This document shows, one piece after another, positions 7,335 through 34,790 of a stretch of DNA of 64,000 nucleotides (position 1 is the first letter of the stretch; each line of letters opens with the position of its first letter). Made by a program: the position numbers and the translations under genes. Source of the DNA: Ascidia mentula (Eukaryota > Chordata > Ascidiacea > Phlebobranchia > Ascidiidae); NCBI GenBank assembly GCA_947561715.1, contig OX387204.1:997001-1061000 (forward strand), written 5' to 3'. Under the pieces are notes generated by a model. That model was not told the DNA's origin and searched no databases. It worked only from the letters and a program-made list of their open reading frames with translations.

Positions 7335-7362
7335 AACCAAGGTTCGAATCCTGGTCACAGCA
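7335..7362 (+). pseudogene. 3' fragment of tRNA-His marking the left edge of the array
   Basis: The last ~28 nt of a tRNA-His (end of the anticodon arm, T arm, acceptor 3' strand) followed by the normal trailer with its T4 run. The sequence upstream is unrelated to the repeat, so the array starts inside a truncated His gene. Confidence 0.85.
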
Positions 7363-7488
7363 AGCTTTTGAGTATTCTTTGTTCTTCAAATTCAAATATT
7401 TTGTTCACACTCAAACATAGTATTCCACTTTTCGAAGTTGGAGATGAAAATTTGGGTATTTAATCAGATTTTCTTTCACCAAAACAGC

Positions 7489-7637
7489 AGCAGAGTGGCG
7501 CAGCGGAAGCGTGCTGGGCCCATAACCCAGAGGTCGATGGATCGAAACCATCCTCTGCTACATAGGCTGTGATCGTATAGTGGTTAGTACTTCACGTTGT
7601 GGCCGTGACAACCCAGGTTCGAATCCTGGTCACAGCA
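7489..7637 (+). tRNA. Pair 1: tRNA-iMet(CAT) + tRNA-His(GTG)
   Basis: iMet 7489-7560; His 7566-7637. Linker is catag, so a G is encoded at position -1 of the His; most other units have C there. Confidence 0.95.
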
Positions 7638-7763
7638 AGCTTTTGAGTATTCTTTGTTCTTCAAATTCAAATATTTTGTTCACACTCAAGCAGAGCATTC
7701 CACTTTTCGAAGTTGGAGGTGAAAATTTGGATATTTAATCAGATTTTGTTTCACCAAACCAGC

Positions 7764-7912
7764 AGCAGAGTGGCGCAGCGGAAGCGTGCTGGGCCCAAAA
7801 CCCAGAGGTCGATGGATCGAAACCATCCTCTGCTACATACGCTGTGATCGTATAGTGGTTAGTACTTCACGTTGTGGCCGTGACAACCCAGGTTCGAATC
7901 CTGGTCACAGCA
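7764..7912 (+). tRNA. Pair 2: iMet body with anticodon CAA + tRNA-His(GTG)
   Basis: iMet-like 7764-7835, otherwise normal, but the anticodon reads CAA instead of CAT; His 7841-7912. Confidence 0.92.
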
Positions 7913-8038
7913 AGCTTTTAAGTATTCCTTTTTCTTTCATTTCAATTATTTTGTTCACACTTTAACATAGCATTCCACTTTTCGAAGTTGGAGACGAAAA
8001 ATTGGGTATTTAATCAGATTTTGTTTCACCAAGCCAGC

Positions 8039-8187
8039 AGCAGAGTGGCGCAGCGGAAGCGTGCTGGGCCCATAACCCAGAGGTCGATGGATCGAAACCA
8101 TCCTCTGCTACATACGCTGTGATCGTATAGTGGTTAGTACTTCACGTTGTGGCCGTGACAACCCAGGTTCGAATCCTGGTCACAGCA
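8039..8187 (+). tRNA. Pair 3: tRNA-iMet(CAT) + tRNA-His(GTG)
   Basis: iMet 8039-8110; His 8116-8187. Consensus. Confidence 0.95.
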
Positions 8188-8313
8188 AGCTTTTGAGTAT
8201 TCTTTGTTCTTCAAATTCAAATATTTTGTTCACACTCGAGCAGAGCATTCCACTTTTCGAAGTTGGAGACGAAAATTTGGATATTTAATCAGATTTTGTA
8301 TCACCACGCCAGC

Positions 8314-8462
8314 AGCAGAGTGGCGCAGCGGAAGCGTGCTGGGCCCATAACCCAGAGGTCGATGGATCGAAACCATCCTCTGCTACATACGCTGTGATCG
8401 TATAGTGGTTAGTACTTCACGTTGTGGCCGTGACAACCCAGGCTCGAATCCTGGTCATAGCA
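8314..8462 (+). tRNA. Pair 4: tRNA-iMet(CAT) + tRNA-His(GTG)
   Basis: iMet 8314-8385; His 8391-8462 with a T-loop T>C (ggctcg) and an acceptor C>T giving a G-U pair. Confidence 0.93.
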
Positions 8463-8588
8463 AGATTTTAAGTATTCCTTTTTCTTTCATTTCAATTATT
8501 TTGTTCACACTTAAACATAGCATTCCACTTTTCGAAGTTGGAGACGAAAATTTGTGTATTTAATCAGATTTTGTTTCACCAAGCCAGC

Positions 8589-8737
8589 AGCAGATTGGCG
8601 CAGCGGAAGCGTGCTGGGCCCATAACACAGAGGTCGATGGATCGAAACCATCCTCTGCTACATACGCTGTGATCGTATATTGGTTAGTACTTCACGTTGT
8701 GGCCGTGACAACCCAGGTTCGAATCCTGGTCACAGCA
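8589..8737 (+). tRNA. Pair 5: variant tRNA-iMet + tRNA-His(GTG)
   Basis: iMet 8589-8660 with G7>T and a C>A in the 3' anticodon stem; His 8666-8737 with a D-arm G>T (box A region). Confidence 0.85.
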
Positions 8738-8980
8738 AGCTTTTAAGTATTCCTTTTTCTTTCATATCAATTATTTTGTTCACAGTTAAACATAGCATTC
8801 CACTTTTCGAAGTTGGAGACGAAAATTTGGGTATTTAATCAGATTTTGTTTCACCAAGCTTTTGTGTATTCTTTGTTCTTAAAATTCAAATATTTTTTTA
8901 CCGCCAGAGAGAGCACACCACTTTCCAAGTTAGAAGTAAAAATTTGGATATTTAATCAGATTTTTTCCCACCAAGCCAGC
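8738..8980 (+). repeat. Array unit that has lost its tRNA pair
   Basis: A full spacer and leader reach 'tcaccaagc' at about 8851-8859 and then run straight into 'ttttgtgtattc', the trailer that normally follows tRNA-His. The pair between them is missing, as if deleted by exchange at the short caagc shared by the leader end and the His 3' end. Confidence 0.85.
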
Positions 8981-9129
8981 AGCAGAGTGGCGCAGCGGAA
9001 GCGTGCTGGGCCCATAACCCAGAGGTCGATGGATCGAAACCATCCTCTGCTACATACGCTGTGATCGTATAGTGGTTAGTACTTCACGTTGTGGCCGTGA
9101 CAACCCAGGTTCGAAGCCTGGTCACAGCA
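8981..9129 (+). tRNA. Pair 6: tRNA-iMet(CAT) + tRNA-His(GTG)
   Basis: iMet 8981-9052; His 9058-9129 with T>G in the T-arm (cgaagcc). Confidence 0.93.
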
Positions 9130-9255
9130 AGCTTTTGAGTATTCTTTGTTCTTCAAATTCAAATATTTTGTTCACACTCGAGCAGAGCATTCCACTTTTC
9201 GACGTTGGAGGTGAAAATTTGGATATTTAATCAGATTTTCTTTCAACCAGCCAGC

Positions 9256-9404
9256 AGCAGAGTGGCGCAGCGGAAGCGTGCTGGGCCCATAACCCAGAGG
9301 TCAATGGATCGAAACCATCCTCTGCTACATACGCTGTGATCGTATAGTGGTTAGTACTTCACGTTGTGGCCGTGACAACCCAGGTTCGAATCCCGGTCAC
9401 AGCA
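9256..9404 (+). tRNA. Pair 7: tRNA-iMet(CAT) + tRNA-His(GTG)
   Basis: iMet 9256-9327 (gtcAatgg); His 9333-9404 with a T-stem A-C mismatch (tcccgg). Confidence 0.92.
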
Positions 9405-9528
9405 AGCTTTTGAGTATTCTTTGTTCTAAAAATTCAAATATTTTTTTACCGCCAGACATAGCACTCCACTTTCCAAGTTAGAAGTAAAAATTTGGATATT
9501 TAATCAGATTTTGTTCCACCAAGTCAGC

Positions 9529-9677
9529 AGCAGAGTGGCGCAGCGGAAGCGTGCTGGGCCCATAACCCAGAGGTCGATGGATCGAAACCATCCTCTGCTA
9601 CATACGCTGTGATCGTATAGTGGTTAGTACTTCACGTTGTGGCCGTGACAACCCAGGTTCGAATCCTGGTCACAGCA
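9529..9677 (+). tRNA. Pair 8: tRNA-iMet(CAT) + tRNA-His(GTG)
   Basis: iMet 9529-9600; His 9606-9677. Confidence 0.95.
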
Positions 9678-9803
9678 AGCTTTTGAGTATTCTTTGTTCT
9701 TCAAATTCAAATATTTTGTTCACACTCGAGCAGAGCATTCCACTTTTCGACGTTGGAGGTGAAAATTTGGATATTTAATCAGATTTTCTTTCAACCAGCC
9801 AGC

Positions 9804-9952
9804 AGCAGAGTGGCGCAGCGGAAGCGTGCTGGGCCCATAACCCAGAGGTCGATGGATCGAAACCATCCTCTGCTACATACGCTGTGATCGTATAGTGGTT
9901 AGTACTTCACGTTGTGGCCGTGACAACCCAGGTTCGAATCCTGGTCACAGCA
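9804..9952 (+). tRNA. Pair 9: tRNA-iMet(CAT) + tRNA-His(GTG)
   Basis: iMet 9804-9875; His 9881-9952. Confidence 0.95.
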
Positions 9953-10076
9953 AGCTTTTGAGTATTCTTTGTTCTTCAAATTCAAAAAAATTTTTACCGG
10001 CAGACAGAGCACTCCACATTCCAAGTTGGAAGTAAAAATTTGGATATTTAATCAGATTTTGTTCCACCAAGCCAGC

Positions 10077-10225
10077 AGCAGAGTGGCGCAGCGGAAGCGT
10101 GCTGGGCCCATAACCCAGAGGTCGATGGATCGAAACCATCCTCTGCTACATACGCTGTGATCGTATAGTGGTTAGTACTTCACGTTGTGGCCGTGACAAC
10201 CCAGGTTCGAATCCTGGTCACAGCA
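10077..10225 (+). tRNA. Pair 10: tRNA-iMet(CAT) + tRNA-His(GTG)
   Basis: iMet 10077-10148; His 10154-10225. Confidence 0.95.
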
Positions 10226-10350
10226 AGCTTTTGAGTATTCTTTGTTCTTAAAATTCAAATAATTTTTTTACCGCCAGACAGAGCACTCCACATTCCAAGT
10301 TGGAAGTAAAAATTTGGATATTTAATCAGATTTTGTTCCACCAAGCCAGC

Positions 10351-10499
10351 AGCAGAGTGGCGCAGCGGAAGCGTGCTGGGCCCATAACCCAGAGGTCGAT
10401 GGATCGAAACCATCCTCTGCTACATACGCTGTGATCGTATAGTGGTTAGTACTTCACGTTGTAGCCGTGACAACCCAGGGTCGAATCCTGGTCACAGCA
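10351..10499 (+). tRNA. Pair 11: tRNA-iMet(CAT) + His body with anticodon GTA
   Basis: iMet 10351-10422; His-like 10428-10499 with anticodon GTG>GTA and a T-loop T>G (caggg tcgaa), which weakens box B. Confidence 0.92.
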
Positions 10500-10623
10500 A
10501 GCTTTTGAGTATTCTTTGTTCTTCAAATTCAAAAAATTTTTTACCGGCAGACAGAGCACTCCACATTCCAAGTTGGAAGTAAAAATTTGGATATTTAATC
10601 AGATTTTGTTCCACCAAGCCAGC

Positions 10624-10772
10624 AGCAGAGTGGCGCAGCGGAAGCGTGCTGGGCCCATAACCCAGAGGTCGATGGATCGAAACCATCCTCTGCTACATAC
10701 GCTGTGATCGTATAGTGGTTAGTACTTCACGTTCTGGCCGTGACAACCCAGGTTCGAATCCTGGTCACAGCA
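10624..10772 (+). tRNA. Pair 12: tRNA-iMet(CAT) + His body with anticodon CTG
   Basis: iMet 10624-10695; His-like 10701-10772 with anticodon GTG>CTG, otherwise intact. Confidence 0.92.
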
Positions 10773-10897
10773 AGCTTTTGAGTATTCTTTGTTCTTAAAA
10801 TTCAAATAATTTTTTTACCGCCAGACAGAGCACTCCACATTCCAAGTTGGAAGTAAAAATTTGGATATTTAATCAGATTTTGTTCCACCAAGCCAGC

Positions 10898-11046
10898 AGC
10901 AGAGTGGCGCAGCGGAAGCGTGCTGGGCCCATAACCCAGAGGTCGATGGATCGAAACCATCCTCTGCTACATACGCTGTGATCGTATAGTGGTTAGTACT
11001 TCACGTTGTGGCCGTGACAACCCAGGTTCGAATCCTGGTCACAGCA
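10898..11046 (+). tRNA. Pair 13: tRNA-iMet(CAT) + tRNA-His(GTG)
   Basis: iMet 10898-10969; His 10975-11046. Confidence 0.95.
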
Positions 11047-11172
11047 AGCTTTTAAGTATTCCTTTTTCTTTCATTTCAATTATTTTGTTCACACTTAAAC
11101 ATAGCATTCCACTTTTCGAAGTTGGAGACGAAAATTTGGGTATTTAATCAGATTTTGTTTCACCAAGCCAGC

Positions 11173-11321
11173 AGCACAGTGGCGCAGCGGAAGCGTGCTG
11201 GGCCCATAACCCAGAGGTCGATGGATCGAAACCATCCTCTGCTACATACGCTGTGATCGTATAGTGGTTAGTACTTCACGTTGTGGCCGTGACAACCCAG
11301 GTTCGAATCCTGGTCACAGCA
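11173..11321 (+). tRNA. Pair 14: variant tRNA-iMet + tRNA-His(GTG)
   Basis: iMet 11173-11244 with G5>C (acceptor mismatch); His 11250-11321. Confidence 0.92.
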
Positions 11322-11446
11322 AGCTTTTGAGTATTCTTTGTTCTTAAAATTCAAATAATTTTTTTACCGCCAGACAGAGCACTCCACATTCCAAGTTGGA
11401 AGTAAAAATTTGGATATTTAATCAGATTTTGTTCCACCAAGCCAGC

Positions 11447-11595
11447 AGCAGAGTGGCGCAGCGGAAGCGTGCTGGGCCCATAACCCAGAGGTCGATGGAT
11501 CGAAACCATCCTCTGCTACATACGCTGTGATCGTATAGTGGTTAGTACTTCACGTTGTGGCCGTGACAACCCAGGTTCGAATCCTGGTCACAGCA
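11447..11595 (+). tRNA. Pair 15: tRNA-iMet(CAT) + tRNA-His(GTG)
   Basis: iMet 11447-11518; His 11524-11595. Confidence 0.95.
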
Positions 11596-11721
11596 AGCTT
11601 TTAAGTATTCCTTTTTCTTTCATTTCAATTATTTTGTTCACACATAAACATAGCATTCCACTTTTCGAAGTTGGAGACGAAAATTTGGGTATTTAATCAG
11701 ATTTTGTTTCACCAAGCCAGC

Positions 11722-11866
11722 AGCACAGTGGCGCAGCACGCTGCTGCGCCCATAACCCAGAGGTCGTGGATCGAAACCATCCTCTGCTACATACGCTGTG
11801 ATCGTATAGTGGTTAGTACTTCACGTTGTGGCCGTGACAACCCAGGTTCGAATCCTGGTCACAGCA
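11722..11866 (+). tRNA. Pair 16: degenerate iMet pseudogene + tRNA-His(GTG)
   Basis: iMet-like 11722-11789 is only 68 nt: rearranged D-arm/anticodon 5' stem (gcacgctgctgcgccc), G5>C and a base lost before tggatcg, so it cannot fold normally. His 11795-11866 is intact. Confidence 0.88.
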
Positions 11867-11992
11867 AGGTTTTGAGTATTCTTTGTTCTTCAAATTCAAA
11901 TATTTTGTTCACACTCGAGCAGAGCATTCCACTTTTCGACGTTGGAGGTGAAAATTTGGATATTTAATCAGATTTTCTTTCAACCAGCCAGC

Positions 11993-12141
11993 AGCAGAGT
12001 GGCGCAGCGGAAGCGTGCTGGGCCCATAACCCAGAGGTCGATGGATCGAAACCATCCTCTGCTACATACGCTGTGATCGTATAGTAGTTAGTACTTCACG
12101 TTGTGGCCGTGACAACCCAGGTTCGAATCCTGGTCACAGCA
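11993..12141 (+). tRNA. Pair 17: tRNA-iMet(CAT) + tRNA-His(GTG)
   Basis: iMet 11993-12064; His 12070-12141 with D-arm G>A. The trailer reads agccttt, so the usual T4 is broken. Confidence 0.93.
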
Positions 12142-12267
12142 AGCCTTTGAGTATTCTTTGTTCTTCAAATTCAAATATTTTGTTCACACTCGAGCAGAGC
12201 ATTCCACTTTTCGAAGTTGGAGACGAAAATTTGGATATTTAATCAGATTTTGTATCACCACGCCAGC

Positions 12268-12416
12268 AGCAGAGTGGCGCAGCGGAAGCGTGCTGGGCCC
12301 ATAACCCAGAGGTCGATGGATCGAAACCATCCTCTGCTACATACGCTGTGATCGTATAGTGGTTAGTACTTCACGTTGTGGCCGTGACAACCCAGGCTCG
12401 AATCCTGGTCACAGCA
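12268..12416 (+). tRNA. Pair 18: tRNA-iMet(CAT) + tRNA-His(GTG)
   Basis: iMet 12268-12339; His 12345-12416 (T-loop ggctcg). Confidence 0.94.
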
Positions 12417-12542
12417 AGCTTTTGAGTATTCTTTGTTCTTCAAATTCAAATATTTTGTTCACACTCGAGCAGAGCATTCCACTTTTCGACGTTGGAGGTG
12501 AAAATTTGGATATTTAATCAGATTTTCTTTCATCCAGCCAGC

Positions 12543-12691
12543 AGCAGAGTGGCGCAGCGGAAGCGTGCTGGGCCCATAACCCAGAGGTCGATGGATCGAA
12601 ACCATCCTCTGCTACATACGCTGTGATCGTATAGTGGTTAGTACTTCACGTTGTGGCCGTGACAACCCAGGTTCGAATCCTGGTCACAGCA
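12543..12691 (+). tRNA. Pair 19: tRNA-iMet(CAT) + tRNA-His(GTG)
   Basis: iMet 12543-12614; His 12620-12691. Confidence 0.95.
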
Positions 12692-12817
12692 AGCTTTTGA
12701 GTATTCTTTGTTCTTCAAATTCAAATATTTTGTTCACACTCGAGCAGAGCATTCCCCTTTTCGAAGTTGGAGACGAAAATTTGGATATTTAATCAGATTT
12801 TGTATCACCACGCCAGC

Positions 12818-12966
12818 AGCAGAGTGGCGCAGCGGAAGCGTGCTGGGCCCATAACCCAGAGGTCGATGGATCGAAACCATCCTCTGCTACATACGCTGTG
12901 ATCGTATAGTGGTTAGTACTTCACGTTGTGGCCGTGACAACCCAGGCTCGAATCCTGGTCACAGCA
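12818..12966 (+). tRNA. Pair 20: tRNA-iMet(CAT) + tRNA-His(GTG)
   Basis: iMet 12818-12889; His 12895-12966 (T-loop ggctcg). Confidence 0.94.
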
Positions 12967-13092
12967 AGCTTTTAAATATTCCTTTTTCTTTCATTTCAAA
13001 TATTTTGTTCACACTCAAACATAGCATTCCACTTTTCGAAGTTGGAGATGAAAATTTGGGTATTTAATCAAATTTTGTTTCACCAAGCCAGC

Positions 13093-13241
13093 AGCACAGT
13101 GGCGCAGCGGAAGCGTGTTGGGCCCATAACCCAGAGGTCGATGGATCGAAACCATCCTCTGCTACATACGCTGTGATCGTATCGTGGTTAGTACTTCACG
13201 TTGTGGCGGTGACAACCCAGGTTCGAATCCTGGTCACAGCA
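13093..13241 (+). tRNA. Pair 21: variant tRNA-iMet + variant tRNA-His(GTG)
   Basis: iMet 13093-13164 (G5>C, gtgTtgg); His 13170-13241 with A>C in the D-arm and a C>G in the 3' anticodon stem. Confidence 0.88.
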
Positions 13242-13367
13242 AGCTTTTGAGTATTCTTTGTTTTTCAAATTCAAATATTTTGTTCACACTCGAGCAGAGC
13301 ATTCCACTTTTCGACGTTGGAGGTGAAAATTTGGATATTTAATCAGATTTTCTTTCAACCAGCCAGC

Positions 13368-13516
13368 ACCAGAGTGGCGCAGCGGAAGCGTGCTGGGCCC
13401 ATAACCCAGAGGTCGATGGATCGAAACCATCCTCTGCTACATACGCTGTGATCGTATAGTGGTTAGTACTTCACGTTGTGGCCGTGACAACCCAGGTTCG
13501 AATCCTGGTGACAGCA
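13368..13516 (+). tRNA. Pair 22: variant tRNA-iMet + variant tRNA-His(GTG)
   Basis: iMet 13368-13439 with G2>C; His 13445-13516 with an acceptor C>G (ctggtGac). Confidence 0.88.
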
Positions 13517-13642
13517 AGCTTTTGAGTATTCTTTGTTCTTCAAATTCAAATATTTTGTTCATACTCGAGCAGAGCATTCCACTTTTCGACGTTGGAGGTG
13601 AAAATTTGGATATTTAATCAGATTTTCCTTCAACCAGCCAGC

Positions 13643-13791
13643 AGCAGAGTGGCGCAGCGGAAGCGTGCTGGGCCCATAACCCAGAGGTCGATGGATCGAA
13701 ACCATCCTCTGCTACATACGCTGTGATCGTATAGTGGTTAGTACTTCACGTTGTGGCCGTGACAACCCAGGTTCGAATCCTGGTCACAGCA
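13643..13791 (+). tRNA. Pair 23: tRNA-iMet(CAT) + tRNA-His(GTG)
   Basis: iMet 13643-13714; His 13720-13791. Confidence 0.95.
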
Positions 13792-13917
13792 AGCTTTTAA
13801 GTATTCTTTTTTCTTTCATTTCAATTATTTTGTTCACACTCGAGCAGAGCATTCCACTTTTCGACGTTGGAGGTGAAAATTTGGATATTTAATCAGATTT
13901 TCCTTCAACCAGCCAGC

Positions 13918-14066
13918 AGCAGAGTGGCGCAGCGGAAGCGTGCTGGGCCCATAACCCAGAGGTCGTTGGATCGAAACCATCCTCTGCTACATACGCTGTG
14001 ATCGTATAGTGGTTAGTACTTCACGTTGTGGCCGTGACAACCCAGGTTCGAATCCTGGTCACAGCA
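13918..14066 (+). tRNA. Pair 24: tRNA-iMet(CAT) + tRNA-His(GTG)
   Basis: iMet 13918-13989 (gtcgTtgg); His 13995-14066. Trailer agcattta lacks T4; a T6 lies ~14 nt further on. Confidence 0.93.
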
Positions 14067-14192
14067 AGCATTTAAGTATTCTTTTTTCTTTCATTTCAAT
14101 TATTTTGTTCACACTCAAACATAGCATTTCACTTTTCGAAGTTGGAGATGAAAATTTGGGCATTTAATCAGGTTTTGTTTCACCAAGCCAGC

Positions 14193-14341
14193 AGCAGAGT
14201 GGCGCAGCGGAAGCGTGCTGGGCCCATAACCCAGAGGTCGATGGATCGAAACCATCCTCTGCTACACACGCTGTGATCGTATAGTGGTTAGTACTTCACG
14301 TTGTGGCCGTGACAACCCAGGTTCGAATCCTGGTCACAGCA
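14193..14341 (+). tRNA. Pair 25: tRNA-iMet(CAT) + tRNA-His(GTG)
   Basis: iMet 14193-14264; linker cacac; His 14270-14341. Confidence 0.95.
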
Positions 14342-14467
14342 AGCTTTTGAGTATTCTTTGTTCTTCAAATTCAAATGTTTTGTTCACACTCGAGCAGAGC
14401 ATTCCACTTTTCGACGTTGGAGGTGAAAATTTGGATATTTAATCAGATTTTCCTTCAACCAGCCAGC

Positions 14468-14616
14468 AGCAGAGTGGCGCAGCGGAAGCGTGCTGGGCCC
14501 ATAACCCAGAGGTCGATGGATCGAAACCATCCTCTGCTACATACGCTGTGATCGTATAGTGGTTAGTACTTCACGTTGTGGCCGTGACAACCCAGGTTCG
14601 AATCCTGGTCACAGCA
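14468..14616 (+). tRNA. Pair 26: tRNA-iMet(CAT) + tRNA-His(GTG)
   Basis: iMet 14468-14539; His 14545-14616. Trailer agctatta lacks T4; T6 further on. Confidence 0.94.
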
Positions 14617-14742
14617 AGCTATTAAGTATTCTTTTTTCTTTCATTTCAATTATTTTGTTCACACTCGAGCAGAGCATTCCACTTTTCGACGTTGGAGGTG
14701 AAAATTTGGATATTTAATCAGATTTTGTTTTACCAAGCCAGC

Positions 14743-14894
14743 AGCAGAGTGGCGCAGCGGAAGCGTGCTGGGCCCATAACCCAGAGGTCGATGGATTGAA
14801 ACCATCCTCTGCTACATACGCTGTGATCGTATAGTGATTAGTACTTCACGCGGTTGTGGCCGTGACAGCCCAGGTTCGAATCCTGGTCACAGCA
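14743..14894 (+). tRNA. Pair 27: tRNA-iMet(CAT) + 75-nt tRNA-His variant
   Basis: iMet 14743-14814 (T-loop attgaa); His 14820-14894 with 3 extra nt in the anticodon arm (cacgcggttgtgg) and D-arm G>A. Confidence 0.92.
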
Positions 14895-15020
14895 AGCTTT
14901 TGAGTATTCTTTGTTTTTCAATTTCAATTATTTTGTTCACACTCAAACAGAGCATTCCACTTTTGGACGTTGGAGGTGAAAATTTGGATATTTAATCAGA
15001 TTTTCCTTCAACCAGCCAGC

Positions 15021-15169
15021 AGCAGAGTGGCGCAGCGGAAGCGTGCTGGGCCCATAACCCAGAGGTCGATGGATTGAAACCATCCTCTGCTACATACGCT
15101 GTGATCGTATAGTGGTTAGTACCTCACGTTGTGGCCGTGACAACCCAGGTTCGAATCCTGGTCACAGCA
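15021..15169 (+). tRNA. Pair 28: tRNA-iMet(CAT) + tRNA-His(GTG)
   Basis: iMet 15021-15092 (attgaa); His 15098-15169 (gtacCtcac). Confidence 0.93.
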
Positions 15170-15295
15170 AGCTTTTGAGTATTCTTTGTTCTTCAAATTC
15201 AAATATTTTGTTCATACTCGAGCAGAGCATTCCACTTTTGGACGTTGGAGGTGAAAATTTGGATATTTAATCAGATTTTCCTTCAACCAGCCAGC

Positions 15296-18747: not shown

Positions 18748-18767
18748 AGCTTTTTCAACCAGCCAGC

Positions 18768-26795: not shown

Positions 26796-26921
26796 AGCTT
26801 TTAAGTATTCTTTTTTCTTTCATTTCAATTATTTTGTTCACACTCAAACATAGCATTTCACTTTTCGAAGTTGGAGATGAAAATTTGGGTATTTAATCAG
26901 GTTTTGTTTCACCAAGCCCGC

Positions 26922-27070
26922 AGCAGAGTGGCGCAGCGGAAGCGTGCTGTTCCCATAACCCAGAGGTCGATGGATCGTAACCATCCTCTGCTACGTACGC
27001 TGTGATCGTATAGTGGTTAGTACTTCACGTTGTGGCCGTGACAACCCAGGTTCGAATCCTGGTCACAGCA
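26922..27070 (+). tRNA. Pair 72: variant tRNA-iMet + tRNA-His(GTG)
   Basis: iMet 26922-26993 with two G>T in the 5' anticodon stem (gctgttcccat) and cgTaacc; linker cgtac; His 26999-27070. Confidence 0.89.
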
Positions 27071-27196
27071 AGCTTTTGAGTATTCTTTGTTTTTCAATTT
27101 CAATTATTTTGTTCACACTCAAACATAGCATTCCACTTTTCGAAGTTGGAGATGAAAATTTGGGTATTTAATCAGATTTTGTTTTACCAAGCCAGC

Positions 27197-27345
27197 AGCA
27201 GAGTGGCGCAGCGGAAGCGTGCTGGGCCCATAACCCATAGGTCGATGGATCGAATCCATCCTCTGCTACATACGCTGTGATCGTATAGTGGTTAGTACTT
27301 CACGTTGTGGCCGTGACAACCCAAGATCGAATCCTGGTCACAGCA
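27197..27345 (+). tRNA. Pair 73: variant tRNA-iMet + variant tRNA-His(GTG)
   Basis: iMet 27197-27268; His 27274-27345; same variants as pair 40. Confidence 0.9.
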
Positions 27346-27471
27346 AGCTTTTGAGTATTCTTTGTTCTTCAAATTCAAATATTTTGTTCACACTCGAGCA
27401 GAGCATTCCACTTTTCGACATTGGAGGTGAAAATTTGGATCTTTAATCAGATTTTCCTTCAACCAGCCAGC

Positions 27472-27620
27472 AGCATAGTGGCGCAGCGGAAGCGTGCTGG
27501 GCCCATAACCCAGAGGTCGATGGATCGAAACCATCCTCTGCTACATACGCTGTGATCGTATAGTGGTTAGTACTTCACTTTGTGGCCGTGACAACCCAGG
27601 TTCGAATCCTGGTCACAGCA
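27472..27620 (+). tRNA. Pair 74: variant tRNA-iMet + variant tRNA-His(GTG)
   Basis: iMet 27472-27543 (G5>T); His 27549-27620 with G>T in the anticodon stem (tcacTttgtgg). Confidence 0.89.
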
Positions 27621-27746
27621 AGCTTTTAAGTATTCTTTTTTCTTTCATTTCAATTATTTTGTTCACACTCAAACATAGCATTTCACTTTTCGAAGTTGGA
27701 GATGAAAATTTTGGTATTTAATCAGGTTTTGTTTCACCAAGCCAGC

Positions 27747-27895
27747 AGCAGAGTGGCGCAGCGGAAGCGTGCTGGGCCCATAACCCAGAGGTCGATGGAT
27801 CGAAACCATCCTCTGCTACATACGCTGTGATCGTATAGTGGTTAGTACTTCACGTTGTGGCCGTGACAACCCAGGTTCGAATCCTGGTCACAGCA
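27747..27895 (+). tRNA. Pair 75: tRNA-iMet(CAT) + tRNA-His(GTG)
   Basis: iMet 27747-27818; His 27824-27895. Confidence 0.95.
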
Positions 27896-28021
27896 AGCTT
27901 TTGAGTATTCTTTGTTCTTCAAATTCAAATATTTTGTTCATACTCGAGCAGAGCATTCCACTTTTCGACGTTGGAGGTGAAAATTTGGATATTTAATCAG
28001 ATTTTCCTTCAACCAGCCAGC

Positions 28022-28170
28022 AGCAGAGTGGCGCAGCGGAAGCGTGCTGGGCCCATAACCCAGAGGTCGATGGATCGAAACCATCCTCTGCTACATACGC
28101 TGTGATCGTATAGTGGTTAGTACTTCACGTTGTGGCCGTGACAACCCAGGTTCGAATCCTGGTCACAGCA
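28022..28170 (+). tRNA. Pair 76: tRNA-iMet(CAT) + tRNA-His(GTG)
   Basis: iMet 28022-28093; His 28099-28170. Confidence 0.95.
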
Positions 28171-28296
28171 AGCTTTTAAGTATTCTTTTTTCTTTCATTT
28201 CAATTATTTTGTTCACACTCGAGCAGAGCATTCCACTTTTCGACGTTGGAGGTGAAAATTTGGATATTTAATCAGATTTTCCTTCAACCAGCCAGC

Positions 28297-28445
28297 AGCA
28301 GAGTGGCGCAGCGGAAGCGTGCTGGGCCCATAACCCAGAGGTCGATGGATCGAAACCATCCTCTGCTACATACGCTGTGATCGTATAGTGGTTAGTACTT
28401 CACGTTGTGGCCGTGACAACCCAGTTTCGAATCCTGGTCACAGCA
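28297..28445 (+). tRNA. Pair 77: tRNA-iMet(CAT) + tRNA-His(GTG)
   Basis: iMet 28297-28368; His 28374-28445 (cagTttcg). Confidence 0.93.
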
Positions 28446-28571
28446 AGCTTTTAAGTATTCTTTTTTCTTTCATTTCAATTATTTTGTTCACACTCAAACA
28501 TAGCATTTCACTTTTCGAAGTTGGAGATGAAAATTTGGGTATTTAATCAGGTTTTGTTTCACCAAGCCCGC

Positions 28572-28720
28572 AGCAGAGTGGCGCAGCGGAAGCGTGCTGT
28601 TCCCATAACCCAGAGGTCGATGGATCGTAACCATCCTCTGCTACGTACGCTGTGATCGTATAGTGGTTAGTACTTCACGTTGTGGCCGTGACAACCCAGG
28701 TTCGAATCCTGGTCACAGCA
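28572..28720 (+). tRNA. Pair 78: variant tRNA-iMet + tRNA-His(GTG)
   Basis: iMet 28572-28643 (gctgttcccat, cgTaacc); linker cgtac; His 28649-28720; copy of pair 72. Confidence 0.89.
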
Positions 28721-28846
28721 AGCTTTTGAGTATTCTTTGTTTTTCAATTTCAATTATTTTGTTCACACTCAAACATAGCATTCCACTTTTCGAAGTTGGA
28801 GATGAAAATTTGGGTATTTAATCAGATTTTGTTTTACCAAGCCAGC

Positions 28847-28995
28847 AGCAGAGTGGCGCAGCGGAAGCGTGCTGGGCCCATAACCCATAGGTCGATGGAT
28901 CGAATCCATCCTCTGCTACATACGCTGTGATCGTATAGTGGTTAGTACTTCACGTTGTGGCCGTGACAACCCAAGATCGAATCCTGGTCACAGCA
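28847..28995 (+). tRNA. Pair 79: variant tRNA-iMet + variant tRNA-His(GTG)
   Basis: iMet 28847-28918; His 28924-28995; same variants as pair 40. Confidence 0.9.
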
Positions 28996-29121
28996 AGCTT
29001 TTGAGTATTCTTTGTTCTTCAAATTCAAATATTTTGTTCACACTCGAGCAGAGCATTCCACTTTTCGACATTGGAGGTGAAAATTTGGATCTTTAATCAG
29101 ATTTTCCTTCAACCAGCCAGC

Positions 29122-29270
29122 AGCATAGTGGCGCAGCGGAAGCGTGCTGGGCCCATAACCCAGAGGTCGATGGATCGAAACCATCCTCTGCTACATACGC
29201 TGTGATCGTATAGTGGTTAGTACTTCACGTTGTGGCCGTGACAACCCAGGTTCGAATCCTGGTCACAGCA
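29122..29270 (+). tRNA. Pair 80: variant tRNA-iMet + tRNA-His(GTG)
   Basis: iMet 29122-29193 (G5>T, upstream TCTTTAA); His 29199-29270. Confidence 0.91.
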
Positions 29271-29396
29271 AGCTTTTAAGTATTCTTTTTTCTTTCATTT
29301 CAATTATTTTGTTCACACTCAAACATAGCATTTCACTTTTCGAAGTTGGAGATGAAAATTTTGGTATTTAATCAGGTTTTGTTTCACCAAGCCAGC

Positions 29397-29545
29397 AGCA
29401 GAGTGGCGCAGCGGAAGCGTGCTGGGCCCATAACCCAGAGGTCGATGGATCGAAACCATCCTCTGCTACATACGCTGTGATCGTATAGTGGTTAGTACTT
29501 CACGTTGTGGCCGTGACAACCCAGGTTCGAATCCTGGTCACAGCA
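29397..29545 (+). tRNA. Pair 81: tRNA-iMet(CAT) + tRNA-His(GTG)
   Basis: iMet 29397-29468; His 29474-29545. Confidence 0.95.
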
Positions 29546-29671
29546 AGCTTTTGAGTATTCTTTGTTCTTCAAATTCAAATATTTTGTTCATACTCGAGCA
29601 GAGCATTCCACTTTTCGACGTTGGAGGTGAAAATTTGGATATTTAATCAGATTTTCCTTCAACCAGCCAGC

Positions 29672-29820
29672 AGCAGAGTGGCGCAGCGGAAGCGTGCTGG
29701 GCCCATAACCCAGAGGTCGATGGATCGAAACCATCCTCTGCTACATACGCTGTGATCGTATAGTGGTTAGTACTTCACGTTGTGGCCGTGACAACCCAGG
29801 TTCGAATCCTGGTCACAGCA
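29672..29820 (+). tRNA. Pair 82: tRNA-iMet(CAT) + tRNA-His(GTG)
   Basis: iMet 29672-29743; His 29749-29820. Confidence 0.95.
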
Positions 29821-29946
29821 AGCTTTTAAGTATTCTTTTTTCTTTCATTTCAATTATTTTGTTCACACTCGAGCAGAGCATTCCACTTTTCGACGTTGGA
29901 GGTGAAAATTTGGATATTTAATCAGATTTTCCTTCAACCAGCCAGC

Positions 29947-30095
29947 AGCAGAGTGGCGCAGCGAAAGCGTGATGTGCCCATAACCCAGAGGTCGATGGAT
30001 CGAAACCATCCTCTGCTACATACGCTGTGATCGTATAGTGGTTAGTACTTCACGTTGTGGCCGTGACAACCGAGGTTCGAATCCTGGTCACAGCA
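29947..30095 (+). tRNA. Pair 83: variant tRNA-iMet + tRNA-His(GTG)
   Basis: iMet 29947-30018 with gcgAaag and a damaged anticodon stem (gAtgTgccc); His 30024-30095 (accGagg). Confidence 0.88.
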
Positions 30096-30221
30096 GGCTT
30101 TTGAGTATTCTTTGTTCTTTCATTTCAATTATTTTGTTCACACTCAAACATAGCATTTCACTTTTCGAAGTTGGAGATGAAAATTTGGGTATTTAATCAG
30201 GTTTTGTTTCACCAAGCCAGC

Positions 30222-30370
30222 AGCAGAGTGGCGCAGCGGAAGCGTGCTGGGCCCATAACCCATAGGTCGATGGATCGAATCCATCCTCTGCTACATACGC
30301 TGTGATCGTATAGTGGTTAGTACTTCACGTTGTGGCCGTGACAACCCGAGATCGAATCCTGGTCACAGCA
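30222..30370 (+). tRNA. Pair 84: variant tRNA-iMet + variant tRNA-His(GTG)
   Basis: iMet 30222-30293 (cccaTag, cgaaTcc); His 30299-30370 (cccgagatcg). Confidence 0.9.
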
Positions 30371-30496
30371 AGCTTTTGAGTATTCTTTGTTCTTCAAATT
30401 CAAATATTTTGTTCACACTCGAGCAGAGCATTCCACTTTTCGACATTGGAGGTGAAAATTTGGATCTTTAATCAGATTTTCCTTCAACCAGCCAGC

Positions 30497-30645
30497 AGCA
30501 TAGTGGCGCAGCGGAAGCGTGCTGGGCCCATAACCCAGAGGTCGATGGATCGAAACCATCCTCTGCTACATACGCTGTGATCGTATAGTGGTTAGTACTT
30601 CACGTTGTGGCCGTGACAAACCAGGTTCGAATCCTGGTCACAGCA
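30497..30645 (+). tRNA. Pair 85: variant tRNA-iMet + tRNA-His(GTG)
   Basis: iMet 30497-30568 (G5>T, upstream TCTTTAA); His 30574-30645 (gacaaAcc). Confidence 0.9.
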
Positions 30646-30771
30646 AGCTTTTAAGTATTCTTTTTTCTTTCATTTCAATTATTTTGTTCACACTCAAACA
30701 TAGCATTTCACTTTTCGAAGTTGGAGATGAAAATTTTGGTATTTAATCAGGTTTTGTTTCACCAAGCCAGC

Positions 30772-30920
30772 AGCAGAGTGGCGCAGCGGAAGCGTGATGG
30801 GCCCATAACCCAGAGGTCGATGGATCGAAACCATCCTCTGCTACATACGCTGTGATCGTATAGTGGTTAGTACTTCACGTTGTGGCCGTGACAACCCAGG
30901 TTCGAATCCTGGTCACAGCA
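30772..30920 (+). tRNA. Pair 86: tRNA-iMet(CAT) + tRNA-His(GTG)
   Basis: iMet 30772-30843 (gtgAtggg); His 30849-30920. Confidence 0.93.
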
Positions 30921-31046
30921 AGCTTTTGAGTATTCTTTGTTCTTCAAATTCAAATATTTTGTTCACACTCGAGCAGAGCATTCCACTTTTCGACGTTGGA
31001 GGTGAAAATTTGGATATTTAATCAGATTTTCCTTCAACCAGCCAGC

Positions 31047-31195
31047 AGCAGAGTGGCGCAGCGGAAGCGTGCTGGGCCCATAACCCAGAGGTCGATGGAT
31101 CGAAACCATCCTCTGCTACATACGCTGTGATCGTATAGTGGTTAGTACTTCACGTTGTGGCCGTGACAACCCAGGTTCGAATCCTGGTCACAGCA
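31047..31195 (+). tRNA. Pair 87: tRNA-iMet(CAT) + tRNA-His(GTG)
   Basis: iMet 31047-31118; His 31124-31195. Confidence 0.95.
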
Positions 31196-31321
31196 AGCTT
31201 TTAAGTATTCTTTTTTCTTTCATTTCAATTATTTTGTTCACACTCGAGCAGAGCATTCCACTTTTCGACGTTGGAGGTGAAAATTTGGATATTTAATCAG
31301 ATTTTCCTTCAACCAGCCAGC

Positions 31322-31470
31322 AGCAGAGTGGCGCAGCGGAAGCGTGCTGGGCCCATAACCCAGAGGTCGATGGATCGAAACCATCCTCTGCTACATACGC
31401 TGTGATCGTATAGTGGTTAGTACTTCACGTTGTGGCCGTGACAACCCAGGTTCGAATCCTGGTCACAGCA
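31322..31470 (+). tRNA. Pair 88: tRNA-iMet(CAT) + tRNA-His(GTG)
   Basis: iMet 31322-31393; His 31399-31470. Confidence 0.95.
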
Positions 31471-31596
31471 AGCTTTTAAGTATTCTTTTTTCTTTCATTT
31501 CAATTATTTTGTTCACACTCAAACATAGCATTTCACTTTTCGAAGTTGGAGATGAAAATTTGGGTATTTAATCAGATTTTGTTTCACCAAGCCAGC

Positions 31597-31745
31597 AGCA
31601 GAGTGGCGCAGCGGAAGTGTGCTGGGCCCATAACCCAGAGGTCGATGGATCGAAACCATCCTCTGCTACATACGCTGTGATCGTATAGTAGTTAGTACTT
31701 CACGTTGTGGCCGTGACAACCCAGGTTCGAATCCTGGTCACAGCA
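31597..31745 (+). tRNA. Pair 89: tRNA-iMet(CAT) + tRNA-His(GTG)
   Basis: iMet 31597-31668 (gaagTgtg); His 31674-31745 (tagtAgtt). Confidence 0.93.
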
Positions 31746-31871
31746 AGCTTTTGAGTATTCTTTGTTTTTCAATTTCAATTATTTTGTTCACACTCAAACA
31801 CAGCATTCCACTTTTCGAAGTTGGAGATGAAAATTTAGGTATTTAATCAGATTTTGTTTCACCAAGCCAGC

Positions 31872-32020
31872 AGCAGAGTGGCGCAGCGGAAGCGTGCTGG
31901 GCCCATAACCCAGAGGTCGATGGATCGAAACCATCCTCTGCTACATACGCTGTGATCGTATAGTGGTTAGTACTTCACGTTGTGGCCGTGACAACCCAGG
32001 TTCGAATCCTGGTCACAGCA
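31872..32020 (+). tRNA. Pair 90: tRNA-iMet(CAT) + tRNA-His(GTG)
   Basis: iMet 31872-31943; His 31949-32020. Confidence 0.95.
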
Positions 32021-32146
32021 AGCTTTTGAGTATTCTTTGTTTTTCAATTTCAATTATTTTGTTCACACTCAAACATAGCATTCCACTTTTCGAAGATGGA
32101 GATGAAAATTTGGGTATTTAATCAGATTTTGTTTTACCAAGCCAGC

Positions 32147-32295
32147 AGCAGAGTGGCGCAGCGAAAGCGTGCTGGGCCCATAACCCATAGGTCGATGGAT
32201 CGAAACCATCCTCTGCTACATACGCTGTGATCGTATAGTGGTTAGTACTTCACGTTGTGGCCGTGACAACCCAGGTTCGAATCCTGGTCACAGCA
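32147..32295 (+). tRNA. Pair 91: tRNA-iMet(CAT) + tRNA-His(GTG)
   Basis: iMet 32147-32218 (gcgAaag, cccaTag); His 32224-32295. Confidence 0.92.
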
Positions 32296-32421
32296 AGCTT
32301 TTAAGTATTCTTTTTTCTTTCATTTCAATTATTTTGTTCACACTCGAGCAGAGCATTCCACTTTTCGACGTTGGAGGTGAAAATTTGGATATTTAATCAG
32401 ATTTTCCTTCAACCAGCCAGC

Positions 32422-32570
32422 AGCAGAGTGGCGCAGCGGAAGCGTGCTGGGCCCATAACCCAGAGGTCGATGGATCGAAACCATCCTCTGCTACATACGC
32501 TGTGATCGTATAGTGGTTAGTACTTCACGTTGTGGCCGTGACAACCCAGGTTCGAATCCTGGTCACAGCA
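32422..32570 (+). tRNA. Pair 92: tRNA-iMet(CAT) + tRNA-His(GTG)
   Basis: iMet 32422-32493; His 32499-32570. Confidence 0.95.
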
Positions 32571-32696
32571 AGCTTTTAAGTATTCTTTTTTCTTTCATTT
32601 CAATTATTTTGTTCACACTCAAACATAGCATTTCACTTTTCGAAGTTGGAGATGAAAATTTGGGTATTTAATCAGGTTTTGTTTCACCAAGCCAGC

Positions 32697-32845
32697 AGCA
32701 GAGTGGCGCAGCGGAAGTGTGCTGGGCCCATAACCCAGAGGTCGATGGATCGAAACCATCCTCTGCTACATACGCTGTGATCGTATAGTGGTTAGTACTT
32801 CACGTTGTGGCCGTGACAACCGAGGTTCGAATCCTGGTCACAGCA
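32697..32845 (+). tRNA. Pair 93: tRNA-iMet(CAT) + tRNA-His(GTG)
   Basis: iMet 32697-32768 (gaagTgtg); His 32774-32845 (accGagg). Confidence 0.93.
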
Positions 32846-32971
32846 AGCTTTTGAGTATTCTTTGTTCTTCAAATTCAAATATTTTGTTCACACTCGAGCA
32901 GAGCATTCCACTTTTCGACGTTGGAGGTGAAAATTTGGATATTTAATCAGATTTTCCTTCAACCAGCCAGC

Positions 32972-33120
32972 AGCAGAGTGGCGCAGCGGAAGCGTGCTGG
33001 GCCCATAACCCAGAGGTCGATGGATCGAAACCATCCTCTGCTACATACGCTGTGATCGTATAGTGGTTAGTACTTCACGTTGTGGCCGTGACAACCCAGG
33101 TTCGAATCCTGGTCACAGCA
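32972..33120 (+). tRNA. Pair 94: tRNA-iMet(CAT) + tRNA-His(GTG)
   Basis: iMet 32972-33043; His 33049-33120. Confidence 0.95.
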
Positions 33121-33246
33121 AGCTTTTGAGTATTCTTTGTTTTTCAATTTCAATTATTTTGTTCACACTCAAACATAGCATTCCACTTTTCGAAGTTGGA
33201 GATGAAAATTTGGGTATTTAATCTGATTTTGTTTTACCAAGCCAGC

Positions 33247-33395
33247 AGCAGAGTGGCGCAGCGAAAGCGTGCTGGGCCCATAACCCATAGGTCGATGGAT
33301 CGAAACCATCCTCTGCTACATACGCTGTGATCGTATAGTGGTTAGTACTTCACGTTGTGGCCGTGACAACCCAAGATCGAATCCTGGTCACAGCA
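33247..33395 (+). tRNA. Pair 95: variant tRNA-iMet + variant tRNA-His(GTG)
   Basis: iMet 33247-33318 (gcgAaag, cccaTag); His 33324-33395 (ccaagatcg). Confidence 0.9.
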
Positions 33396-33521
33396 AGCTT
33401 TTGAGTATTCTTTGTTCTTCAAATTCAAATATTTTGTTCACACTCGAGCAGAGCATTCCACTTTTCGACATTGGAGGTGAAAATTTGGATCTTTAACCAG
33501 ATTTTCCTTCAACCAGCCAGC

Positions 33522-33670
33522 AGCATAGTGGCGCAGCGGAAGCGTGCTGGGCCCATAACCCAGAGGTCGATGGATCGAAACCATCCTCTGCTACATACGC
33601 TGTGATCGTATAGTGGTTAGTACTTCACGTTGTGGCCGTGACAACCCAGGTTCGAATCCTGGTCACAGCA
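33522..33670 (+). tRNA. Pair 96: variant tRNA-iMet + tRNA-His(GTG)
   Basis: iMet 33522-33593 (G5>T, upstream TCTTTAA); His 33599-33670. Confidence 0.91.
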
Positions 33671-33796
33671 AGCTTTTAAGTATTCTTTTTTCTTTCATTT
33701 CAATTATTTTGTTCACACTCAAACATAGCATTCCACTTTTCGAAGTTGGAGATGAAAATTTGGGTATTTAATCAGATTTTGTTTTACCAAGCCAGC

Positions 33797-33945
33797 AGCA
33801 GAGTGGCGCAGCGGAAGCGTGCTGGGCCCATAACCCAGAGGTCGATGGATCGAAACCATCCTCTGCTACATACGCTGTGATCGTATAGTGGTTAGTACTT
33901 CACGTTGTGGCCGTGACAACCCAGGTTCGAATCCTGGTCACAGCA
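33797..33945 (+). tRNA. Pair 97: tRNA-iMet(CAT) + tRNA-His(GTG)
   Basis: iMet 33797-33868; His 33874-33945. Confidence 0.95.
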
Positions 33946-34071
33946 AGCTTTTAAGTATTCTTTTTTCTTTCATTTCAATTATTTTGTTCACACTCAAACA
34001 TAGCATTCCACTTTTCGAAGTTGGAGATGAAAATTTGGGTATTTAATCAGATTTTGTTTTACCAAGCCTGC

Positions 34072-34220
34072 AGCAGAGTGGCGCAGCGGAAGCGTGCTGG
34101 CCCCATAACCCAGAGGTCGATGGATCGAAACCATCCTCTGCTACATACGTTGTGATCGTATAGTGATTAGTACTTCACGTTGTGGCCGTGACAACCCAGG
34201 TTCGAATCCTGGTCACAGCA
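34072..34220 (+). tRNA. Pair 98: tRNA-iMet(CAT) + tRNA-His(GTG)
   Basis: iMet 34072-34143 (anticodon-stem ctggCccc); His 34149-34220 with C2>T (T-G pair) and D-arm G>A. Confidence 0.92.
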
Positions 34221-34346
34221 AGCTTTTGAGTATTCTTTGTTCTTCAAATTCAAATATTTTGTTCACACTCGAGCAGAGCATTCCACTTTTCGACGTTGGA
34301 GGTGAAAATTTGGGTATTTAATCAGATTTTGTTTCACCAAGCCAGC

Positions 34347-34495
34347 AGCAGAGTGGCGCAGCGGAAGCGTGCTGGGCCCATAACCCAGAGGTCGACGGAT
34401 CGAAACCATCCTCTGCTACATACGCTGTGATCGTATAGTGGTTAGTACTTCACGTTGTGGCCGTGACAACCCAGGTTCGAATCCTGGTCACAGCA
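34347..34495 (+). tRNA. Pair 99: tRNA-iMet(CAT) + tRNA-His(GTG)
   Basis: iMet 34347-34418 (gtcgaCgg); His 34424-34495. Confidence 0.95.
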
Positions 34496-34621
34496 AGCTT
34501 TTAAGTATTCTTTGTTTTTCAATTTCAATTATTTTGTTCACACTCAAACATAGCATTCCACTTTTCGACATTGGAGGTGAAAATTTGGATCTTTAATCAG
34601 ATTTTCCTTCAACCAGCCAGC

Positions 34622-34770
34622 AGCATAGTGGCGCAGCGGAAGCGTGCTGGGCCCATAACCCAGAGGTCGATGGATCGAAACCATCCTCTGCTACATACGC
34701 TGTGATCGTATAGTGGTTAGTACTTCACGTTGTGGCCGTGACAACCCAGGTTCGAATCCTGGTCACAGCA
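34622..34770 (+). tRNA. Pair 100: variant tRNA-iMet + tRNA-His(GTG)
   Basis: iMet 34622-34693 (G5>T); His 34699-34770. Last unit; the usual trailer is replaced by unrelated flanking DNA. Confidence 0.92.
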
Positions 34771-34780
34771 GGTTCCTTTG

Positions 34781-34785
34781 TTTTT
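34781..34785 (+). terminator. T5 run after the last tRNA-His
   Basis: TTTTT 10 nt past the last His gene, usable as a Pol III stop in place of the agctttt trailer found in other units. Confidence 0.5.
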
Positions 34786-34790
34786 CTAGG

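What the first reader, a model, noticed from the sequence alone, without database searches (positions are those of the whole stretch)
7335..34790. 100 tandem two-tRNA units: 200 tRNA genes, only iMet and His, in 27 kb
I counted 100 pairs by position, all on one strand with 275-bp spacing. Large tandem tRNA arrays are known, but one made purely of initiator Met plus His in a fixed 1:1 ratio is unusual. Initiator tRNA limits translation starts, so ~100 genes in one block suggests a dose need such as oogenesis or early embryo. Functional coupling with His is unexplained.
Basis: partly seen in the sequence, partly recalled or inferred. Interest (0 to 1): 0.9.

Follow-up and report, generated by a model that had tools for sequence, protein, structure and literature searches.

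The report
Sea-squirt array of paired tRNA genes
A sea squirt carries 100 head-to-tail copies of a start-codon tRNA gene set almost directly against a histidine tRNA gene, one of several such long tRNA arrays in its genome, so the pairing looks like part of a wider architecture rather than something special to these two tRNAs.

Summary
In detail: the window holds 100 full-length initiator-Met and 100 full-length His tRNA genes, alternating, all on + (7489-34770), mostly 275 bp apart. The genome fits the sea squirt Ascidia mentula.

Two facts change the interpretation. iMet and His lie 5 nt apart in 100/100 units, with no T4 inside the pair and a T4 3 nt after His in 94/100, so each unit should yield one dicistronic Pol III precursor. 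And the array is not peculiar to iMet/His: 8 of 8 isotype queries of this genome hit tandem arrays, a Lys+Glu array has about 271 units, and tight pairs recur as Glu-Gly and Ile-Phe.

Singleton variants are as dense in tRNAs as in spacers (30 vs 25), but shared variants are depleted in tRNAs (27 vs 56, p=1.6e-4), as expected of a homogenised, selected gene family.

Tandem tRNA arrays and dimeric tRNA genes are each known; I found no report of the combination in an animal in the listings. Transcription is untested.

The parts
7333..34770 (+). tandem array of 100 iMet-His units (plus a 30-bp His remnant at the left end)
7333..7362 (+). truncated 3' end of a His gene: left edge of the array
   Evidence: 30 bp, 96.7% identity to His 43-72
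7489..7560 (+). initiator tRNA-Met(CAT), unit 1, equal to the consensus (A1:T72, GGG/CCC anticodon stem, A54/A60)
   Evidence: identity elements recalled
7561..7565 (+). 5-nt iMet-His linker of unit 1 (CATAG here; CATAC in 86 of 100 units), no T-run
7566..7637 (+). tRNA-His(GTG), unit 1
7641..7644 (+). T4, presumed Pol III terminator, 3 nt after His (same position in 94 of 100 units)
7638..7763 (+). 126-bp spacer between His of unit 1 and iMet of unit 2 (terminator, then leader of the next unit)
8589..8980 (+). unit 5, 392 bp instead of 275
18599..18767 (+). unit 41, 169-bp short unit: both tRNAs and a 20-bp spacer that keeps a T-run and the last bases of the leader
21247..21415 (+). unit 51, second 169-bp short unit, identical in sequence to unit 41
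34622..34770 (+). unit 100, last pair; right edge, T-run 10 nt after His

Best explanation
This is a functional tandem array of dicistronic RNA polymerase III units in the ascidian Ascidia mentula. In each unit Pol III starts just upstream of iMet, reads through the 5-nt linker and His, and stops at the T4 about 3 nt after His. RNase P (or RNase MRP, which cuts the fission-yeast Ser-Met dimer) and RNase Z then separate the pair, and Thg1 would add G-1 to His. The 1:1 ratio needs no functional link between the two tRNAs: once they sat in one unit, tandem duplication and unequal exchange copied them together. The array is one of several in a genome where every tRNA isotype queried lies in tandem arrays. 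Shown: gene content, 5-nt linker, T-run position, arrays in 8 of 8 isotype queries, depletion of shared variants in the tRNAs, repeated blocks of identical units. Inferred: transcription as a dimer, the processing enzymes, selection and unequal exchange as causes, and expression of most copies.
For: Linker is 5 nt in 100/100 units. T4 occurs inside 0/100 pairs and at +3 after His in 94/100 (+10 to +36 in the other 6). Other tight pairs (Glu-Gly on C67 and C72, Ile-Phe on C67) also have no T4 between the genes, while most widely spaced genes have their own T4 within about 15 nt, with exceptions. Same genome: Lys-Glu array with 271 Lys and 271 Glu(CTC) calls over 83 kb; Val/Arg, Thr/Ile/Asn, eMet/Leu, Ala and Asp arrays. 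Selection (99 units): singleton variants 30 in 144 tRNA bp vs 25 in 126 spacer bp (p=0.89); shared minor variants 27 vs 56 (p=1.6e-4). The Lys-Glu array (269 units) shows the same depletion of shared variants (66 in 145 bp vs 112 in 158 bp, p=0.004). Homogenisation: repeated runs of identical units (6 units at 29 and 62) and closer nearest neighbours after the first 20 units (0.0042 vs 0.0106, p=3e-5).
Against: No RNA data. His keeps full tRNA structure, so it could also be transcribed alone. T4 is not an absolute stop: the Lys-TTT genes read carry T4 in the anticodon loop. 23 of 100 units have neither tRNA equal to the consensus. tRNA changes are not more frequent at the array's left end (1.3 vs 1.2 per unit, p=0.64), so edge decay holds only for whole-unit divergence. 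Singletons are somewhat denser in the Lys and Glu genes than in their spacer (58 vs 41, p=0.03). The orphan pair on C73 has a 1-nt linker. The variant tests treat variants as independent, which block duplication violates. Ser, Pro, Gln, Cys, Trp and Tyr were not searched.
Confidence: 0.77

Rival explanations
1. Dose amplification specific to initiator tRNA (and His), selected for oogenesis or early embryos.
For: 100 iMet copies in one block, 98 of 99 of normal length with CAT; A. mentula spawns eggs and sperm freely.
Against: 8 of 8 isotypes queried are in arrays, elongator Met among them with 117 first-look candidates of which 40 were scored, so iMet is not singled out. Another tunicate, Didemnum vexillum, has almost 99% of its tDNAs unclustered, so large arrays are not a general tunicate need.
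Confidence: 0.12
2. The two genes are packed tightly but transcribed independently, each from its own A and B boxes.
For: Both genes keep full tRNA structure in most copies.
Against: No T-run between them in 100/100, so Pol III starting at iMet should read into His; the initiation-factor site of His would lie on the iMet gene (inference).
Confidence: 0.12
3. A tRNA-derived satellite or SINE cluster without tRNA function, or a transcriptionally silent array.
For: Period, block duplications and mutated copies resemble a satellite; the Arabidopsis Ser-Tyr-Tyr array is silent in most tissues (abstract).
Against: Shared variants are depleted in both tRNAs relative to the spacer; 98 of 99 iMet and 91 of 93 His copies of normal length keep their anticodon; the 40 spacer matches scored, of 98 candidates, all lie in this array, so it does not look dispersed. 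None of this excludes silence.
Confidence: 0.07
4. Assembly artefact: an inflated or collapsed copy number.
For: Tandem repeats are prone to this; reads were not available here.
Against: 70 of 100 unit sequences are distinct and the longest exact repeat is 1,816 bp, far below usual HiFi read length (recalled); the published A. mentula assembly is 74x HiFi, QV 64.9.
Confidence: 0.04

Closest known systems
Entamoeba histolytica tRNA gene arrays (PMC2652664; abstract and passages)
   Same: Almost all tRNA genes there, and every isotype queried here, lie in tandem arrays whose units hold one to several tRNA genes.
   Different: Protist; E. histolytica units carry short tandem repeats and some encode 5S RNA. 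Here the tandem-repeat finder reports only the array periods and the 150 of 198 Rfam matches listed are all tRNA. Tight terminator-less pairs were not mentioned in the passages I saw.
Dimeric Ser-Met tRNA precursor of fission yeast (PMC4234475; passages) and Arg-Asp of budding yeast (a reference title in PMC4982682)
   Same: Two tRNAs in one precursor; Met as a partner in fission yeast (that it is the initiator is recalled).
   Different: Not known to me as 100-copy tandem arrays (recalled); partners and order differ; the fission-yeast junction is cut by RNase MRP.
Tunicate tDNA clusters (PMC5006418; passages and section 14)
   Same: Ciona savignyi has 90% of tDNAs in clusters, C. intestinalis and Botryllus about 40%, mostly direct tandem copies.
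   Different: No unit composition or dicistronic pairs in the section read.
Arabidopsis Ser-Tyr-Tyr tRNA cluster (PMC12308677; abstract and outline)
   Same: Tandem multi-tRNA unit; evidence that an array can serve supply in chosen cells.
   Different: A plant cluster of Ser and Tyr tRNAs, silent in most tissues; I did not read whether its genes share transcripts.
Xenopus laevis 3.18-kb tRNA repeat (recalled; no paper found)
   Same: Animal tandem array that includes an initiator Met gene (recalled).
   Different: Eight separate tRNA genes per unit (recalled).

Membership tests
Tandem tRNA gene array (Entamoeba type) | Head-to-tail near-identical units each with one or more tRNA genes, tens to hundreds of copies | tested here: met
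   100 units, mostly 275 bp; Lys-Glu array of about 271 units
Tandem tRNA gene array (Entamoeba type) | Most of the genome's tRNA genes lie in such arrays | tested here: inconclusive
   8 of 8 isotype queries hit arrays; 23 anticodons counted in them; a few dispersed Gly, Val and Ala copies too; other isotypes not searched, counts are lower bounds
Dicistronic (dimeric) Pol III tRNA gene | Two tRNAs on one strand, short spacer, no terminator between, terminator after the second | tested here: met
   5-nt linker 100/100, T4 inside 0/100, T4 at +3 in 94/100
Dicistronic (dimeric) Pol III tRNA gene | A dimeric precursor is made and cleaved | not testable with these tools
   no RNA data
tRNA-derived SINE or satellite | Dispersed copies, or tRNA part as free to vary as the rest | tested here: not met
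   the 40 spacer matches scored (of 98 candidates) all lie in this array; shared variants 27 in tRNA vs 56 in spacer

The most novel reading that the evidence does not exclude
An animal has rebuilt its nuclear tRNA gene set as Entamoeba-like tandem arrays, and in several of them pairs of unrelated tRNAs (iMet-His, Glu-Gly, Ile-Phe) are fused into operon-like dicistronic Pol III units. This locks their stoichiometry and ties the cell's supply of initiator tRNA to an elongator tRNA, with copy number set by array-wide exchange.
Probability: 0.5. Interest if true: 0.72.

Novelty: new variant of a known kind. Interest (0 to 1): 0.58.

Why it matters
If the dimers are made, this is a natural case in an animal, in the sister group of vertebrates, where initiator tRNA output is bound to that of an elongator tRNA. 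The arrays also let mutation and selection be read within one genome: singletons give the mutation input and shared variants show what homogenisation lets through, a direct test of concerted evolution in tRNA genes. The same material bears on why tRNA arrays arise repeatedly in eukaryotes although some relatives lack them.

Tried and rejected
Rejected: tRNA-derived satellite or SINE; assembly inflation; iMet-specific amplification as the main cause; chance.

Led nowhere: the iMet-His pair pattern gave 0 matches in viral contigs and in prokaryotic genome contigs. A protein search with a right-flank ORF found 2 unnamed relatives. Pfam on 9 flanking ORFs gave Sushi repeats in 2, a sub-threshold claudin-like match in 1 and nothing in 6. 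Folding the pair gave z = -1.43, not remarkable. A search for Xenopus tRNA repeats found no paper. Edge decay is supported for whole units but not for tRNA changes.
Full report
WHAT IS THERE. ARAGORN finds 197 tRNA genes in the window, all on + between 7489 and 34770. Rfam reports 198; the 150 listed are all tRNA in that stretch. BLASTN with the two consensus genes counts 100 full-length iMet and 100 full-length His copies and one 30-bp His remnant at 7333-7362. The period is 275 bp in 78 of 99 intervals. The iMet consensus has the initiator hallmarks A1:T72, three G:C pairs in the anticodon stem and A54/A60; 88 of 99 copies of 72 nt keep all three (the hallmarks, and the identity with human iMet, are recalled). 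Copies are not all intact: both genes equal the consensus in 39 of 100 units and neither does in 23.

WHICH ORGANISM. The mitochondrial COX1 of the same genome reads correctly with the ascidian code, AGR = Gly (my reading of conserved glycines). Its nearest named relative is Phallusia, 87%. The mitochondrial contig is 19,461 bp, and contigs of 22.72, 21.17, 19.66 and 15.45 Mb agree with chromosomes 4, 6, 8 and 9 of Ascidia mentula kaAscMent1.1: 197.0 Mb in 95 scaffolds, mitochondrion 19.46 kb, 74x HiFi, QV 64.9 (part 1 of 3 of PMC11109543 read). The held copy has 195.84 Mb in 79 contigs, and two of the contigs are about 1 and 5 kb shorter than the scaffold N50 and N90 lengths printed there, so it agrees to rounding, not base for base. 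The window is C72:997001-1061000, chromosome 8 by length.

THE TIGHT PAIR. iMet and His are 5 nt apart in 100 of 100 units: CATAC 86, CACAC 6, CGTAC 5, TATGC 2, CATAG 1. No run of four T lies in iMet, linker or His in any of the 100; the first T4 is 3 nt after His in 94, and 10 to 36 nt after in 6. The two 169-bp units, identical to each other, have only a 20-bp spacer, which keeps a T-run and the last bases of the leader. Pol III that starts at iMet has no signal to stop before the end of His, so a dimeric precursor is the natural reading. That is inference: no RNA was available.

NOT ONLY iMet AND His. The Rfam tRNA model on the whole genome (63 of 19,702 first-look candidates scored) led to a second array on C70 at 14198647-14281939: 271 Lys(TTT), 271 Glu(CTC) and 6 more calls read as Glu(TTC), mostly 302-303 bp apart, with one gene called Asp at its end. 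DNA searches, one isotype each, then placed: Gly on C67 (hits over 10.12-10.33 Mb), in units of about 1,018-1,088 bp with Glu(TTC) and in some of them Ile and Phe, and in a smaller Glu-Gly cluster on C72 at 18.82 Mb (about 8 kb of the C67 stretch read); Val (TAC, AAC, CAC) with Arg(TCT) on C67 at 9.36-9.42 Mb; Asn with Thr (CGT, AGT) and Ile(TAT) on C69; Ala (TGC, CGC) every 140 bp on C2; elongator Met with Leu (TAG, AAG) and Thr on C2; and Asp about every 2,140 bp on C67 (from hit positions only). With iMet and His, 8 of 8 isotype queries hit a tandem array. Dispersed Gly, Val and Ala copies were also listed. Ser, Pro, Gln, Cys, Trp and Tyr were not searched, and the tool states that its counts are lower bounds.

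OTHER TIGHT PAIRS. On C67 Glu(TTC) is followed after 5 nt by Gly in 5 pairs read in L032 and L033, and Ile(AAT) after 5 nt by Phe in 3 pairs of L032; other copies there border withheld stretches. In the C72 cluster 5 of 5 Glu genes are followed by Gly after 3 nt by ARAGORN's ends, 4 by my reading of the Gly start. No T4 lies between the genes, and one follows the second gene within 16 nt. One Gly copy of L032 has a T4 inside. Widely spaced genes in the stretches examined (Lys, Glu(CTC), Val(AAC), Val(CAC), Arg, Thr, Asn, Ile(TAT), lone Gly) mostly have their own T4 within about 15 nt; exceptions are 7 of 20 Ala copies (35-36 nt), 3 of 3 Val(TAC) copies (31-69 nt, one with a T4 inside the gene) and one Thr (52 nt). 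The dicistronic layout is recurrent, which argues against a special link between initiator Met and His.

HOW IT IS KEPT. In the iMet-His array (99 units, last one left out) singleton variants are as dense in the tRNAs (30 in 144 bp) as in the spacer (25 in 126 bp; p = 0.89), but variants shared by two or more units are depleted in the tRNAs (27 vs 56; p = 1.6e-4). The Lys-Glu array (269 units of 295-310 bp) shows the same depletion (66 in 145 bp vs 112 in 158 bp; p = 0.004), with somewhat more singletons in the tRNAs (58 vs 41; p = 0.03). Mutation enters both parts, and what harms a tRNA seems to be kept from spreading. The tests treat variants as independent, which block duplication violates, so the p-values are rough. 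Exchange is visible as repeated runs of identical units (6 units at 29 and 62, 4 at 70 and 76, 3 at 23 and 56). The first 20 units are more isolated than the rest (nearest-neighbour distance 0.0106 vs 0.0042, p = 3e-5) but do not carry more tRNA changes (1.3 vs 1.2 per unit, p = 0.64).

ASSEMBLY. 70 of 100 unit sequences are distinct and the longest exact repeat is 1,816 bp; in the Lys-Glu array it is 3,124 bp. HiFi reads of usual length (recalled) span these, so a false array is unlikely; reads were not examined.

ARE iMet AND His ELSEWHERE? The iMet search scored 32 of 32 candidates: 31 in the window and one on C73. That one lacks the first 19 nt of iMet, has a 1-nt linker and a His with 2 extra bases, and is followed by diverged array spacer, so it looks like a relic. 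For His, 40 of 100 candidates were scored and all lie here. For the spacer, 40 of 98, all here. Limits: fetched genome loci contain withheld stretches and one search found 5 of the 72 exact matches that the window really has, so identical iMet genes elsewhere are not excluded.

COMPARISON. Entamoeba histolytica has almost all tRNA genes in 25 kinds of array unit (PMC2652664, abstract and passages). A survey of eukaryotes states that large tDNA clusters arose many times independently (PMC2888827, passages). Among tunicates C. savignyi has 90% of tDNAs clustered, C. intestinalis and Botryllus about 40%, and in Didemnum almost 99% are unclustered (PMC5006418, section 14). Dimeric precursors are known from fission yeast, pre-tRNA Ser-Met, cut by RNase MRP (PMC4234475, passages), and budding yeast, Arg-Asp (a reference title in PMC4982682). 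In the listings of searches (at most 25 papers shown each, of up to 3,038) I saw no report of dicistronic nuclear tRNA-tRNA genes in an animal, nor of these arrays. The library lacks most subscription journals, so this is weak evidence of absence. Verdict: new variant of a known kind.

Noticed in passing
L013-L022 (G000:C70:14198647-14281939): 83-kb array of about 271 Lys(TTT)+Glu(CTC) units, mostly 302-303 bp, with a 3,124-bp exact internal repeat about 7.5 kb apart that suggests multi-unit block duplication.
   Followed up: yes
L032, L033 (C67, within 10.12-10.33 Mb) and L034 (C72, 18.82 Mb): Other tight tRNA pairs: Glu(TTC)-Gly(GCC) on two chromosomes with different 3-5-nt linkers, and Ile(AAT)-Phe(GAA) with 5 nt.
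   Followed up: partly
L024:1975-2102 (C73:15166975): Orphan relic of one unit: iMet without its first 19 nt, a 1-nt linker, a His with 2 extra bases, and diverged array spacer.
   Followed up: partly
L047, L048 (C2:14786658-14794129): Ala array with a 140-bp single-gene unit that mixes TGC and CGC anticodons along the array, as if one array drifts between isoacceptors.
   Followed up: no
window 60386-63379: Series of short ORFs that look like exons of a Sushi-repeat protein; Pfam Sushi in both of the two that were tested.
   Followed up: no
window 18599-18767 and 21247-21415: Two 169-bp units of identical sequence ten units apart: probably one spacer deletion copied by block duplication.
   Followed up: partly
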